Assembly: GCF_014250515.1 (NCBI RefSeq)
Contig: NZ_CP060202.1
Location: 1,299,001-1,363,000, forward strand
Direction of reading: 5' to 3'
Source: Hymenobacter sediminicola
Lineage (GTDB): Bacteria; Bacteroidota; Bacteroidia; Cytophagales; Hymenobacteraceae
DNA length: 64,000 nt
This document shows positions 1,236 to 59,492 of this stretch, one piece after another. How positions within the stretch are numbered: the first letter of the stretch is position 1; each line of letters begins with the position of its first letter. The notes beneath the pieces are model-generated. The model was not told the DNA's origin, ran no database searches, and saw only the letters and a list, made by a program, of their open reading frames with translations. The translations under genes and the position numbers were made by a program.

Positions 1236-1898
1236 ATGAGGCCCAAACACGTCCTGTTGTTGGGCCTCATTCTGTTGGTCCCGGTGCTGGCTTTCGTGTT
1301 TCTGTACACTTTCGGCACCAACCGTTACGCGCTGCCCACTTTCCTGCCCGACCGTGTCGATTCGACACTGGTGGAAGGAAAGTGGCGGCGCGATACTGTT
1401 TTTCACCAGTTGGCTGATTTTCGGTTTGCTTCACAGTCGGGCCGAGAGATTACGCAGCAGGATGTGGGCGGCGGTGTGTATGTCGCAAACTTCTTCTTCG
1501 CCACCTGCCCCGGTGCCTGCCCCCGCATGAATAGCCAGATGGCCCGGGTACAGGAAAAATTCCGGCACGAGCCGCGCGTGAAACTGGTATCCTATACCGT
1601 TGATCCGGCCCACGACTCCGTAGCGGTGTTGGAACGCTATGCCGAGCAATATGGCGCAATTGCCGGCAAATGGTTCTTCCTGACCGGTGACAAAACCGCA
1701 TTGTATCGGTTAGCTACGGAAGAGTTTCGACTCGATGCTCCCAGTGGGGCCGGACCAGGCATAGTGCATAGCCAGAATCTGTACCTCGTAGACCGGGAAC
1801 ATCGTGTGCGAGGCATCTATGACGGAATGAAACCCAAAGACGTTGAACGTCTGATGACGGAAATCAACGTGCTGTTGTACACCTATGAACACGAATAG
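1236..1898 (+). CDS. SCO1/SenC family copper chaperone
   Basis: SCO proteins are membrane-anchored thioredoxin-fold proteins that deliver copper to the CuA site of cytochrome oxidase subunit II. The 220-residue product has an N-terminal anchor (about residues 5-27). The metal-binding CPGAC motif (Cys91, Cys95) lies in a thioredoxin-like fold, and the third ligand histidine follows in IVHSQ (His178). All three copper ligands are present. The ATG lies 4 bases after subunit IV. The 3' end overlaps the DUF420 gene by 14 bases, which suggests translational coupling within the oxidase operon. Confidence 0.93.
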   Translation: MRPKHVLLLGLILLVPVLAFVFLYTFGTNRYALPTFLPDRVDSTLVEGKWRRDTVFHQLADFRFASQSGREITQQDVGGGVYVANFFFATCPGACPRMNSQMARVQEKFRHEPRVKLVSYTVDPAHDSVAVLERYAEQYGAIAGKWFFLTGDKTALYRLATEEFRLDAPSGAGPGIVHSQNLYLVDREHRVRGIYDGMKPKDVERLMTEINVLLYTYEHE

Positions 1899-3288: not shown

Positions 3289-6200
3289 TTGAAGTTAGCC
3301 CGCTTTCTACCACCAGTATTGCTGCTGGCTGCTCTTCTATGCTTTGCGGGAGCTTACCTGAGCAACCGTTATGGTCAGACGCCCGGCCTACTGTTGCGTA
3401 CCGACGCGAACCGGCTACAAAAGCTGCTAACTAATGCCGAACTGACTGCCGAGCAGGAAGCCACTGAAATAACAGCGGAGGCGCAGCGGGGTGAATTGAA
3501 TTTTGGCAGACTAGTCAGCCAAACGACATATCCCTGCTTTGTATACCGCAACGGGCAGCTACTCTATTGGTCAGACCACACTACCCGTCCCGAGCCGGAA
3601 CACGTTGGGCAGCCCTTCACGGAGAAGCTGGTGACCATGCAGTTTGGGCACTACATTGCTCTGCGGCATGCGGCTGGGCCTTATGTCGTGCTAACCTATG
3701 TGCCGTTGGAAAAAGGCTATGGTATCAGTAACCGTTACCTGCGCGACGGCTCAGAGAAGGCACTATTCCGGGGCCTGAATGTACGGCTGGTAACCAGCGG
3801 GCAACGTGCCGGGTTGCCTAAGCTATACTCTGACGAAGGCAATTACCTGTTTTCGCTGGAAAGCCTGCAACTCAATCCGGCTACCGGCAAGTATCTGCCA
3901 ATGGCCCTGATGCTGCTTGGGTTTGGCTTTTATCTAGGGTGCTGGCTGCTCTGGGCGCGGCAATTAGCCCGAGCCAACAGGGTGCTGGCAGGCGCAGCAA
4001 TACTTCTACTGCCGCTGGTGCTATTGCGGGCAGTGCTGCTGCACTTTGGCTTGCCGTTCTCTTTTATCGAATTGCCGCTTTTCGATCCGCGAGTGTATGC
4101 GGCCTCATGGCTTTCACCTTCTCTTGGTGACTTGCTCATCAACGCTCTGTTGCTGGCCGTGGGGGCCTACTACGTGCAGCGGTTGTTCCGGCGCTACAAT
4201 CCTACACGATGGGTGGAGCGGCTGCAGAACTCGGGGCAGCGCACTGGGGTAGCCACGGTGGCAGGCGTGCTGTTTTTTTGGCTGCTGGAGCTACTGTTTC
4301 AGTTCTACTCCAATAGCTTCAACAACTCCCAGATCATTCTCGATATCACCCAAGATATTTCGGTATCGGGGTTTAAGCTATTGTTGTGCCTCGCTATTGT
4401 GCTGCACACGGGCTCCTACCTGGTGGGGTTTTATATGCTGGCGCAGCTGTTCAGCGCGGCGGTGCGGCCGGAAACCAAGCGGGGTAGCATCTTTGGGCTG
4501 GGCCTGAGTGCCCTGCTTTTCCTGCCGATTGGTATTGCGCTGGGCCAGGTGCATGTGCTGCTGGTGGGTATTACACTGTGGTTTCTGCTGCTGCTGCGCC
4601 TGATGGGGCTGCGGCGCGTGGCAGCAGTGGTGCCGTATCAAGTATACTTGTTCATTTTCCTGATGCTGGGTATCAGCTCGGCGGTTGGGGCGCTGGCCTT
4701 GTTCGAGCACTTCGACCGGCAGCTGGTCATCAACAAGCAGACTCTTGCCGGAAACCTGCTCGTGGACAACGACCTGCAAGGAGAATTTCTGCTGACGGAA
4801 CGTACCCGTGAAATGGCGGCCGATCCGCTCATCCGGACGCTACTGGCCAGCCCGTTTGCCAGCTCGGAAGTGGTGCGCCAGAAGATAGTCAAGCACTACC
4901 TGCGCGACTATTTTGACAAGTATGAAATAACAGTTTCGCTTTTCGACCCGGCCGGTCGCCCTTTGGGCGCCGGGCTAGGGGCCGAATCGTTGTCGGAGGC
5001 GCGCAGCCGGCTGCTGAAGAATGCTACTCGCACCGATCAGCTCAACCTGTTTTTGGTGCGCGGCAGCAACTCGTTCAGCACCCGCCGCTACGTCGATTTT
5101 GTGGCCGTGCCGGCTCCAACCAATGGGTCTAGTACCGTGCTGCTGGAGCTCACACTAAAAAAGCTGACCACGTACAGCGTAGTGCCCGAGCTGCTCGTCG
5201 ACCAGAAGTTCTTTCAGCCTGGCCTGGGGGCTGAGTTGAGCTATGCGGGTTTCGAAAAGGACCGGCTGGTGTACAATGAAGGAGACTTCGACTACGTGAA
5301 CCGCCTGCTGCCGCACCAGTACAACGACCCGCGCCTCTACCGTACCGGGTTGGTGGCGGGCCGCTACCACCATCTGGCCGTGCGCGACGAAGCCCAGCAC
5401 CGCACGGTGGTCGTGACGACGGACAACTACAGCTTCACCGATTGGTTGGCCAATTTCTCGTTCCTGTTTCTGCTGCACACGTTTTTCTGGCTGCTCAGCA
5501 TTGGGCTGTACTTGCTGGTGCGCGGCGAGTATCTGGAGATATTCCGCACCAACTTCAGCACCAAAATTCAGCTCTTCCTCAACTTCGGCATTCTGGTGCC
5601 GCTGGTGATTGTGAGTATTGCGACGGCCAGCCAGGTTACGTCGTCGTACAAGCGCGACCTGCGCCGCACCTATGAGCGGCGCGGCCGGGCCGTGCAGGAA
5701 AACCTGCTGCAAAACCGCGCCCTGCTCACTGACTCCATGGGCCGCGCCGCGCTGTTCGACCTGGCCGATAACGTGTCCTCGCTCACCGAAACCGACCTCA
5801 ACCTCTACGATGCCAGCGGCGAACTGCTGGTCAGCAGCCAGCCTATCATTTTCGAGTCGGGGTTGCTGGGTACCCTGATGAACCCGCAGGCTGTAGCAGC
5901 GCTGAAGGAACGCACGCAGCCGCGCGTACTGCTAACTGAGCGGGCCGGCTCGCTCTCGTTCAATGCGCTGTACCTGCCGTTGCGCGCCCCGGAGGAAGAG
6001 GCCGGACAGGCGGGCCGGGTGCTGGGGTACGTGGGTATTCCGTTCTTCGATTCAGAGAAAGAGCTGGACAACAAGCTTATCGAGTTGATTTCGACCCTGG
6101 TGAACATCTTCACGGTGATGTTCATCTTCTTCCTGATTCTCACCTTCGTGGCCTCTCGGGTGCTGACCGATCCGCTGAAGCTGCTCACCGAAAAGCTCAA

Positions 6201-51773: not shown

Positions 51774-51844
51774 GGTGACGTGACCGAGTGGCTAGGTAGA
51801 GGTCTGCAAAACCTCCTACAGCGGTTCGAATCCGCTCGTCACCT
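51774..51844 (+). tRNA. tRNA-Cys (GCA anticodon)
   Basis: The 71-base gene has a 7-bp acceptor stem (GGTGACG with CGTCACC), a U discriminator base, an anticodon loop containing GCA and a GGTTCGAATCC T-loop. The U73 discriminator and GCA anticodon fit tRNA-Cys. It lies between rpsA and a PAP2 gene. No CCA is encoded, so it is added afterwards. Confidence 0.95.
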
Positions 51845-59090: not shown

Positions 59091-59098
59091 TATATTTG
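59091..59098 (+). promoter_or_regulatory. -7 promoter element of the candidate ncRNA
   Basis: TATATTTG is an exact match to TAnnTTTG. It lies about 50 bases after the kdsA stop codon, and a TTG 22 bases upstream (59066-59068) may serve as the -33 element. It predicts a transcript start near 59105. Confidence 0.6.
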
Positions 59099-59104
59099 TT
59101 ACGT

Positions 59105-59360
59105 TGGAAACAAAAGTAGCAGAGAGCACGCGCCCCCTGCTACCGTTTCCGCTAAGGGCCAAATAGGAGGAAAATTCCTCCCACACCGCCCAAAGCAGCT
59201 ACAACTTTCATTGCAAAAGCTGTAGTTATTTGGATGGAGCATTCAAAACGAAGCCCGTCCAAATCAGCACGTCTCGTACCCATGACCAATGGATTTGAGG
59301 GTGGCCAAAACACCCTTCTTATCCTGAAGCCCGTGTTACAGCACGGGCTTCGCTGTTTTT
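59105..59360 (+). ncRNA. Candidate structured non-coding RNA, class unknown
   Basis: Between the convergent kdsA and O-methyltransferase genes lies about 450 bases with no plausible gene. A full -7 promoter box stands before, and an intrinsic terminator ends, a run of about 256 bases. Within it are several hairpins: a 5' one with GGAAAC/GTTTCC and GTAGCAG/CTGCTAC arms; GGAGGAA/TTCCTCC at 59166-59181; a CTACAACTTT/AAAAGCTGTAG stem at 59200-59225; and TTTGGATGG/CCGTCCAAA at 59230-59263. I did not recognise tmRNA, RNase P, SRP or 6S signatures. An embedded 42-codon frame from 59234 runs into the terminator and looks accidental. Confidence 0.55.
59326..59360 (+). terminator. Terminator of the candidate ncRNA
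   Basis: A perfect 10-bp stem GAAGCCCGTG with CACGGGCTTC (59326-59335 and 59342-59351) encloses a 6-base loop and ends in GCTGTTTTT. Confidence 0.85.
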
Positions 59361-59492
59361 AAGCAGCCGTGTTGGCGGGGTGACAACCGTACGTATTGCC
59401 AAAGATACTAGCAATATGGTATTTAGGTTTGTTCTGTGGCCTTGTTTTGCTAAAAAAAATAGTAAAACAAGATTGGTTTATTGTTCGGCCGC

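What the first reader, a model, noticed from the sequence alone, without database searches (positions are those of the whole stretch)
59105..59360. Probable independent small RNA between kdsA and a methyltransferase gene
Two convergent genes leave a 450-base gap that holds a perfect -7 promoter box (TATATTTG), four or more stable hairpins and a strong intrinsic terminator in the right order on the plus strand. There is no convincing protein. I could not match it to tmRNA, RNase P RNA, SRP RNA or 6S RNA by eye. It may be a known class that I did not recognise, or a lineage-specific regulator.
Basis: partly seen in the sequence, partly recalled or inferred. Interest (0 to 1): 0.62.

Follow-up and report, generated by a model that had tools for sequence, protein, structure and literature searches.

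The report
Tiny toxin-like gene with antisense RNA
The supposed small RNA lies opposite a tiny gene for a membrane-type peptide, and together they look like a toxin gene and its RNA silencer, of a family found on Hymenobacter chromosomes, plasmids and in a prophage.

Summary
The kdsA–methyltransferase gap does hold a plus-strand promoter box, hairpins and a terminator, with no Rfam match. But a conserved gene lies on the other strand: a −7 box (59407..59400), a 111-nt structured leader (from 59394), a 43-codon ORF (59283..59152) and a terminator (59144..59115). The plus-strand RNA (about 59105–59360) is antisense to all of the ORF.

The leader model hits 91 of 120 genomes of the genus; copies were found in the kdsA gap, on small mob/rep plasmids and in a prophage. 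In 60 dereplicated copies the plus-strand box follows the ORF in 46 (next 150 nt: 2). Terminators occur on both strands (58 and 55 of 60; controls 6 and 3). The ORF is under purifying selection (omega 0.19–0.37). The leader covaries. The mRNA 5' end tends to be complementary to codons 4–6, which encode the R-A/R-T shared by otherwise unlike peptides.

Best reading: a new type I toxin–antitoxin-like family with a self-locking mRNA. Toxicity and transcription are untested. Seven putative type I pairs were reported earlier in Bacteroides thetaiotaomicron, so this is not the first claim in the phylum.

The parts
59400..59407 (-). -7 promoter box TATCTTTG of the small-protein mRNA, 5 nt before the conserved leader start
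   Evidence: Sequence. Exact TANNTTTG stands at the leader start in 31 of 60 dereplicated copies, against 1 of 60 in an upstream control window; TANNTT[TC]G in 43 of 60, 4-6 nt before the leader in 41 of those 43.
59107..59394 (-). predicted mRNA of the small protein (about 288 nt)
   Evidence: Conserved leader start and terminator; fold z -9.0. Transcription not shown.
59284..59394 (-). structured 5' leader
   Evidence: Model R1 hits this place at E 4.7e-31 (this copy helped to build the model); covariation on 98 distinct leaders.
59388..59392 (-). 5'-end segment GTACG, predicted to pair with ORF nt 13-17 (59271..59267, CGTGC, one G-U pair)
   Evidence: MFE pairs in the window copy; class covariation over 60 copies.
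59378..59382 (-). leader segment CACCC, partner 1 of GGGTG
   Evidence: Consensus helix 1. In the MFE fold of this copy four of these five bases pair with ORF nt 3-6 instead.
59311..59315 (-). leader segment GGGTG, shared by two mutually exclusive partners
   Evidence: Changes together with both the 5' and the 3' CACCC.
59299..59303 (-). leader segment CACCC, partner 2 of GGGTG, before the start codon
   Evidence: used in the MFE fold of this copy.
59326..59351 (.). hairpin GAAGCCC...GGGCTTC: leader helix 4 on the minus strand, terminator stem on the plus strand
   Evidence: 99.8% of cells paired; at one pair 43 of 98 leaders have both sides changed; plus-strand terminator-like site over the leader in 55 of 60 copies.
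59152..59283 (-). ORF of 43 aa (MGTRRADLDGLRFECSIQITTAFAMKVVAALGGVGGIFLLFGP), putative membrane peptide / toxin
   Evidence: Codon-position bias and omega 0.19 in 14 copies of its subfamily; all 14 have kdsA and methyltransferase genes on their two sides.
59107..59144 (-). intrinsic terminator of the mRNA (stem 59144..59115, then TTTGTTT)
   Evidence: terminator-like site after the ORF in 58 of 60 copies, control 6 of 60.
59091..59098 (+). -7 promoter box TATATTTG of the antisense RNA
   Evidence: box in the 150 nt after the ORF in 46 of 60 copies, 2 of 60 in the next 150 nt, letter shuffles mean 1.9, maximum 7; 14 of 14 in the kdsA-gap copies.
59105..59360 (+). predicted antisense RNA, complementary to the whole ORF, its terminator and about two thirds of the leader; ends at stem 59325-59352 and a T run
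   Evidence: Promoter box and terminator. Transcription not shown; start inferred from the box.

Best explanation
This is a two-gene module of the type I toxin-antitoxin kind. The minus strand makes a short, strongly folded mRNA for a 43-aa peptide with a hydrophobic C-terminal half. The plus strand makes an antisense RNA from a convergent promoter beside the mRNA terminator; it covers the whole ORF and about two thirds of the leader. Shown by sequence comparison: the coding ORF, both -7 boxes, both terminator-like sites, the leader structure and its covariation. Inferred: the mRNA is made in a closed form in which its 5' end pairs with codons 4-6, and the GGGTG segment switches between an upstream partner and one near the start codon, so that ribosomes are kept off. 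Also inferred: the antisense RNA removes or blocks mRNA that opens; when the antisense RNA is lost (plasmid or prophage loss, stress) the peptide is made and damages the membrane. Which of the two leader folds is the active one is not known.
For: Family: leader model hits 91 of 120 genus genomes at E <= 0.01, up to 14 matches per genome. ORF: of 100 distinct leaders, 81 are followed by a 37-52 aa ORF from an ATG 100-125 nt after the leader start; omega 0.19, 0.21, 0.37, 0.22 in four subfamilies with third-position excess. Peptides: 60 of 60 have a 17-aa window of Kyte-Doolittle mean above 1.0 (median 1.54) and 58 of 60 have net charge of at least +1. Plus promoter box 46 of 60 against 2 of 60. 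Terminators 58 and 55 of 60 against 6 and 3. In the 14 kdsA-gap copies both boxes occur in 14 of 14, and identity is 0.71-0.97 in the 20-nt bins from 59414 to 59075 but 0.30-0.54 in the intergenic flanks. Leader covariation: 113 cells with both sides changed against 32.5 +- 5.3 in shuffles. Three-way change: 15 of 16 AGGTG leaders carry the 3' partner CACCT, against 10 of 75 GGGTG leaders. 5' lock: complementarity of at least 6 nt to the first 36 nt of the ORF in 34 of 60, dealt-anew mean 17.3, maximum 28 in 1000; control stretch 1 of 60; predicted pairing in 52 of 60 against 0 of 60 for ORF nt 40-57. Context: small plasmids, between mob and Rep3 genes, and a prophage for the second copy in this genome.
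Against: No expression data and no toxicity test. The -33 promoter element is not enriched on either strand. Exact TANNTTTG at the leader is present in only 31 of 60. Removing the first 30 nt in silico does not free the AUG (mean pairing 0.42 whole, 0.47 trimmed), so the lock would have to act on codons 2-6 rather than on the AUG. The 5'-end/ORF class match is partly inherited within subfamilies, as the high dealt-anew mean shows. Letter-shuffled 3' segments already offer GGGTG a partner (G-U allowed) in a mean of 62 of 98 leaders, against 93 observed. Only 25 of 60 peptides reach a 17-aa hydropathy of 1.6, and the window peptide has net charge +1 and none in its first 15 residues. The structure model is weak (mean pLDDT 61, two helices). 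No match to known toxin families in Pfam. 19 of 100 copies fail the ORF test, which fits decay but also a leader with a use of its own.
Confidence: 0.68

Rival explanations
1. A non-toxic small membrane protein whose synthesis is tuned by a cis-antisense RNA and a folded leader (a stress or envelope protein rather than a toxin).
For: The kdsA-gap subfamily is kept at one chromosomal site in 14 of 14 copies with omega 0.19, as for a useful resident gene. Antisense RNAs over non-toxin genes are known in Bacteroidota (DonS; PMC7366714, passages).
Against: Patchy presence: 3 of 30 kdsA neighbourhoods examined hold it. Relatives on plasmids next to mob/rep genes and in a prophage. Varied peptides share little but the start and a hydrophobic end.
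Confidence: 0.17
2. An independent, trans-acting small RNA on the plus strand; the minus-strand ORF being incidental.
For: Plus-strand promoter box and terminator-like site are conserved.
Against: Purifying selection is strongest in the minus ORF frame. The leader start sits 4-6 nt after a minus -7 box in 41 of 43 copies with such a box. The longest plus-strand ATG ORF in the 14 kdsA-gap copies varies from 12 to 43 aa. G-U outnumbers A-C at the leader pairs when read as minus RNA (76 to 42, but 39 of the 76 at one pair).
Confidence: 0.05
3. A plasmid copy-number or rep-control device (leader peptide plus antisense RNA) that has been scattered to chromosomes.
For: On several small plasmids the element lies between mobilisation genes and a Rep gene.
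Against: It has its own terminator and is about 1 kb from rep on L175. It is kept at kdsA, and in a prophage between structural genes.
Confidence: 0.04
4. A leaderless cationic bacteriocin gene with antisense control.
For: Median net charge +5 and 38-49 aa.
Against: The neighbours of the window copy are a DAHP-synthetase-family and a methyltransferase-domain gene, no immunity or export gene; the window peptide has net charge +1 only. The antisense layout and plasmid/prophage spread suit a toxin-antitoxin module better.
Confidence: 0.04

Closest known systems
aapA/IsoA type I toxin-antitoxin family (Helicobacter pylori; PMC6733600, passages)
   Same: Small toxic protein, cis-overlapping antisense RNA, several copies on the chromosome, folded primary transcript with a long-distance interaction and metastable hairpins.
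   Different: No sequence comparison made beyond Pfam (no match). There the Shine-Dalgarno is masked; here the 5' end is complementary to codons 4-6, and members of this phylum are said to lack Shine-Dalgarno sequences (PMC6847099, start of abstract in the listing). The antisense promoter here lies beyond the mRNA terminator.
hok/Sok (mentioned in PMC6733600, passages; further detail recalled)
   Same: Plasmid context, metastable 5' hairpin, inert primary mRNA.
   Different: The antisense RNA here would cover the whole ORF; no Hok-like match in Pfam.
Putative type I TA pairs of Bacteroides thetaiotaomicron (PMC7366714, passages)
   Same: Same phylum; seven cis-antisense pairs with candidate small ORFs.
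   Different: Reported from architecture and expression pattern; no sequence comparison was made here. The Hymenobacter leader model gave no full-length hit outside its genus.
msoT1/msoA1 of Microcystis (PMC12390103, abstract and passages)
   Same: Type I-like locus outside the classical phyla.
   Different: Growth effect tested in E. coli there; no sequence comparison made here.

Membership tests
type I toxin-antitoxin system | small (<60 aa) peptide with a hydrophobic stretch | tested here: met
   38-49 aa in 60 dereplicated copies (these were selected as 37-52 aa; 19 of 100 leaders failed that selection); 17-aa hydropathy maximum median 1.54, 25 of 60 at 1.6 or more, window copy 2.0.
type I toxin-antitoxin system | real coding gene | tested here: met
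   omega 0.19-0.37 in four subfamilies, third-position excess.
type I toxin-antitoxin system | antisense RNA from its own promoter on the opposite strand | tested here: inconclusive
   Promoter box 46 of 60 and terminator-like site 55 of 60 conserved; -33 element not enriched; transcript not observed.
type I toxin-antitoxin system | toxin mRNA folded so as to limit translation | tested here: inconclusive
   Covarying leader and 5'-end/ORF pairing; effect on translation not tested; AUG not more exposed after trimming.
type I toxin-antitoxin system | peptide is toxic when overproduced | not testable with these tools
   Needs an expression assay.
type I toxin-antitoxin system | antisense RNA neutralises the toxin | not testable with these tools
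   Needs a promoter mutant or co-expression.
known type I toxin families (Hok, Ldr/Fst, Ibs and others; names recalled) | sequence match to a family model | tested here: not met
   7 representative peptides at E up to 10: Pfam 2 weak matches (0.057 TrbI, 0.14 SelB-wing_2), NCBIfam 0, PHROGs 2 weak (0.083, 0.1, unknown function); none a toxin family.
Rfam families (6S, tmRNA, RNase P, SRP and all others) | covariance-model match at gathering score | tested here: not met
   None in the gap; the only match in the window is a tRNA at 51774-51844.

The most novel reading that the evidence does not exclude
A genus-wide type I toxin-antitoxin superfamily in which one conserved RNA leader is joined to several unlike peptides. 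Translation in a phylum without Shine-Dalgarno sequences would be locked by the mRNA 5' end pairing with codons 4-6, which would hold the R-A/R-T motif (52 of 60 peptides) in place, and a GGGTG segment with two covarying, mutually exclusive partners would serve as the switch.
Probability: 0.4. Interest if true: 0.74.

Novelty: new member of a known kind. Interest (0 to 1): 0.6.

Why it matters
Type I systems are described as identified in few phyla, partly because they are hard to predict (PMC12390103, passages); for Bacteroidota, the papers searched gave seven untested putative pairs in B. thetaiotaomicron (searches; passages). Here is a large family, with no gene listed under the match in three named Hymenobacter plasmids (that gene table is incomplete), and with enough copies to read its RNA mechanics by covariation. 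It would let one ask how an mRNA is kept silent where ribosomes do not use Shine–Dalgarno pairing. That it could serve as a plasmid-stability tool in this genus is my judgement.

Tried and rejected
Known RNA classes: cmscan at gathering and at E up to 10, rejected. An RNA tied to kdsA: rejected, since 86 of 100 copies show no KdsA match in their flanks of about 1–1.5 kb and 27 of 30 kdsA neighbourhoods show no leader (in one of the 27, L028, the contig ends 83 nt after kdsA). A plus-strand protein: rejected. A −33 promoter element: looked for, not enriched; [quoted passage not shown] Relatives outside the genus: leader model on 291 order genomes gave 25 genomes of the genus and 4 genomes of two other genera of the family with partial weak hits; 295 class genomes gave only the own genome, and at least two other genomes of the genus in that draw had none; the protein alignment on 200 family genomes gave 60 genomes of the genus and one weak hit inside a 698-aa frame. 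Exact leader pattern in genome contigs: 34 stretches, 31 titled Hymenobacter and 3 others that match only 25–30 leader positions, taken as chance. Viral contigs: 0 for that exact pattern. Structure prediction: mean pLDDT 61, no fold search made. One search printed the wrong side for kdsA loci on the minus strand; I counted instead.

Sampling limits: copies fetched were the best-scoring of the list, not a random draw. Of 123 loci scanned, 100 distinct leaders (matches shorter than 71 model positions and identical copies dropped), 81 with an intact ORF, 60 after dereplication by shared 12-mers. Fourteen of the copies built the model. Alignment A2 (101 matches, 98 distinct) is fitted to that model, so pair counts lean towards it. 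In the identity profile the bins inside kdsA (0.06–0.67) are cut by the ends of the segments and were not used.

Full report
What is at the place. Rfam has nothing there at its cut-offs. The minus strand folds as strongly (z −9.5) and has a terminator-like site at 59144..59115.

A dispersed family. DNA search of 59 genomes gave matches in 13, the own genome included; apart from one of them (L002) and the window copy itself, those places show no KdsA match beside them. Reading the copies in minus orientation showed a common plan: −7 box, leader beginning ACGTACGG or similar, about 111 nt later an ATG, a short ORF, a GC-rich hairpin with T's, then CAAANNTA, which is TANNTTTG on the plus strand. 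A covariance model of the leader (14 copies) hit 91 of 120 genomes of the genus at E ≤ 0.01, up to 14 matches per genome. In the own genome it gave two strong rows and six weak ones at E ≤ 1, one of the weak ones inside the strongest copy. In the order draw the only hits outside the genus are partial and weak, in four genomes of two genera of the family; a class draw gave only the own genome. The genus is Hymenobacter by record titles (for instance the contig of G018 with the kdsA-gap copy has the length of the H. fodinae contig). Other titles in that list include H. psychrotolerans, H. citatus and H. cavernae.

The protein. From 123 loci I took 100 distinct leaders; 81 have a 37–52 aa ORF from an ATG 100–125 nt after the leader start and 19 do not. 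In four subfamilies the ORF frame shows third-position excess with omega 0.19 (14 copies), 0.21 (17), 0.37 (11) and 0.22 (13 copies, of which those of the commonest length were used); the same-strand shifted frames give 0.71–1.93. On the opposite strand one register gives 0.26–0.55, higher than the ORF frame in each subfamily; I read it as the mirror of codon degeneracy. The other two registers give 0.65–2.02. The consensus start is M-x-K-x-R-A and the end is hydrophobic, often HW; R-A or R-T stands in the first eight residues in 52 of 60. The window peptide itself has net charge +1, the median over 60 is +5. Seven representatives match no toxin family in Pfam, NCBIfam or PHROGs at E up to 10. 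AlphaFold gives helices 4–30 and 34–41 at mean pLDDT 61, which I treat as weak.

Two convergent promoters, two terminators. In 60 dereplicated copies with intact ORFs, TANNTTTG lies at the leader start in 31 (upstream control window 1), and its plus-strand counterpart within 150 nt after the stop in 46 (next 150 nt: 2; the box in the other orientation in the same window: 8; letter shuffles mean 1.9, maximum 7 of 200). With TANNTT[TC]G the minus box is found in 43 of 60, 4–6 nt before the leader in 41 of those. No −33 element is enriched on either strand. Terminator-like sites follow the ORF in 58 of 60 (control 6) and stand at the end of the plus-strand RNA over the leader in 55 of 60 (control inside the ORF 3). 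In the 14 copies of the window's subfamily, all in the same gap, both boxes are present 14 of 14, and identity is 0.71–0.97 in 20-nt bins from 59414 down to 59075 but 0.30–0.54 in the intergenic flanks. The conserved block therefore runs from one promoter box to the other and about 16 nt beyond the plus-strand one.

The leader as a switch. On 98 distinct leaders the 17 consensus pairs are 94.1% paired (shuffled 88.1), with 113 cells changed on both sides (shuffled 32.5 ± 5.3); sliding partners by one column drops pairing to 55% or less. The alignment was fitted to the model and the copies are related, so these are not probabilities. The segment GGGTG has two possible partners, a 5' CACCC and a 3' CACCC shortly before the ATG. 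Of 16 leaders with AGGTG, 15 carry CACCT on the 3' side and 15 have T at the matching place on the 5' side; of 75 GGGTG leaders 61 carry CACCC and 10 CACCT on the 3' side. A looser test is less telling: a 3' partner with G-U allowed is present in 93 of 98, but in 62 on average when the letters are shuffled. Covariation with both partners suggests two alternative folds; relatedness was not corrected for. G-U pairs outnumber A-C (76 to 42) when read as minus RNA, a mild lean to the mRNA as the selected strand, with 39 of the 76 at a single pair.

The 5' end reads onto the coding region. The first bases of the mRNA tend to be complementary to codons 4–6. Leaders with GTACG go with ORFs holding CGTAC in 16 and CGTGC in 5 (still paired through G-U), 4 neither; leaders with GCACG go with CGTGC in 24, CGTAC in 1, 3 neither; seven copies have other leader starts. 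A match of at least 6 nt in the first 36 nt of the ORF occurs in 34 of 60; dealing the ORFs anew gives mean 17.3, maximum 28 in 1000; ORF nt 37–72 gives 1 and reversed letters 2. Partition-function folding predicts this pairing (at least 2.5 expected pairs) in 52 of 60 copies and in 0 of 60 for ORF nt 40–57. In the window copy leader nt 3–7 pair with ORF nt 13–17 in the MFE fold, and leader nt 14–17 with ORF nt 3–6. This would explain why unlike peptides share R-A or R-T at this point. Against a simple lock: trimming 30 nt does not free the AUG itself (mean pairing 0.42 whole, 0.47 trimmed).

Where copies live. The window's subfamily sits in the kdsA gap. Among the 30 best KdsA neighbourhoods 3 hold a leader; in one of the other 27 the contig ends 83 nt after kdsA. 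The closest relative (KdsA 99% identical) has 57 bp between the two gene ends instead of 458. The second strong copy of this genome lies in a prophage: neighbours match PHROG head and tape-measure families. Nine small contigs were taken: three have terminal overlaps of 77–123 bp; all ten proteins tested, from six of the nine, match Rep3, relaxase or MobC/NikA models, and in those six the leader lies between the mobilisation-type and the Rep ORF (the relaxase ORFs of L178 and L181 judged by eye). One of the other three (L183) shows no such ORFs by eye. On the named plasmid NZ_CP095059.1 a copy lies between mobC and the replication gene; its ORF is frameshifted. Three of 72,556 plasmid records hold the peptide queried, all Hymenobacter, with no gene listed at the place in a gene table that is incomplete.

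Judgement. The anatomy (small coding gene, structured leader, convergent antisense promoter, two terminators, mobile-element context) is that of a type I toxin–antitoxin module. Function is inferred. A 2025 paper states that type I systems were known only from Proteobacteria, Firmicutes and Tenericutes before its cyanobacterial case (PMC12390103, abstract and passages), but the B. thetaiotaomicron transcriptome paper had reported seven putative pairs (PMC7366714, passages), so I do not claim a first for the phylum. My paper searches showed no report of this family in their listings, which is all I saw of most of those papers.

Noticed in passing
L228:6749-6863 (G000:C1:2611748-2611862, -): The second strong copy in this genome, with a different peptide (ending LYLLISHWP), lies inside a prophage between head and tape-measure genes.
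   Followed up: yes
L173 (NZ_CP095059.1) about 5886-6130: Copy on a 27-kb Hymenobacter plasmid between mobC and the replication gene, not in the listed genes and with a frameshifted ORF; the same plasmid also has VapC-family and PemK/MazF-family toxin genes.
   Followed up: partly
L174 (NZ_CP007144.1, H. swuensis pHsw1) 4876-5114: Copy with an intact ORF among KAP NTPase, TIGR02391, ThiF-family and integrase genes, possibly a defence island.
   Followed up: no
100 distinct leaders: 19 of 100 copies keep the leader but fail the ORF test; whether leader and antisense RNA still do something there is open.
   Followed up: no
L079:861-986 and 1501-1616 (-): Two leaders in close tandem, about 640 bp apart.
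   Followed up: no
upstream of the plus-strand -7 boxes (46 copies): T-rich at -16 to -14 and A-rich at -8 to -6 before the box, not seen before the minus-strand boxes.
   Followed up: no
L017 (G007): A genome with 99% identical KdsA lacks the element in the same gap, a natural empty site.
   Followed up: partly
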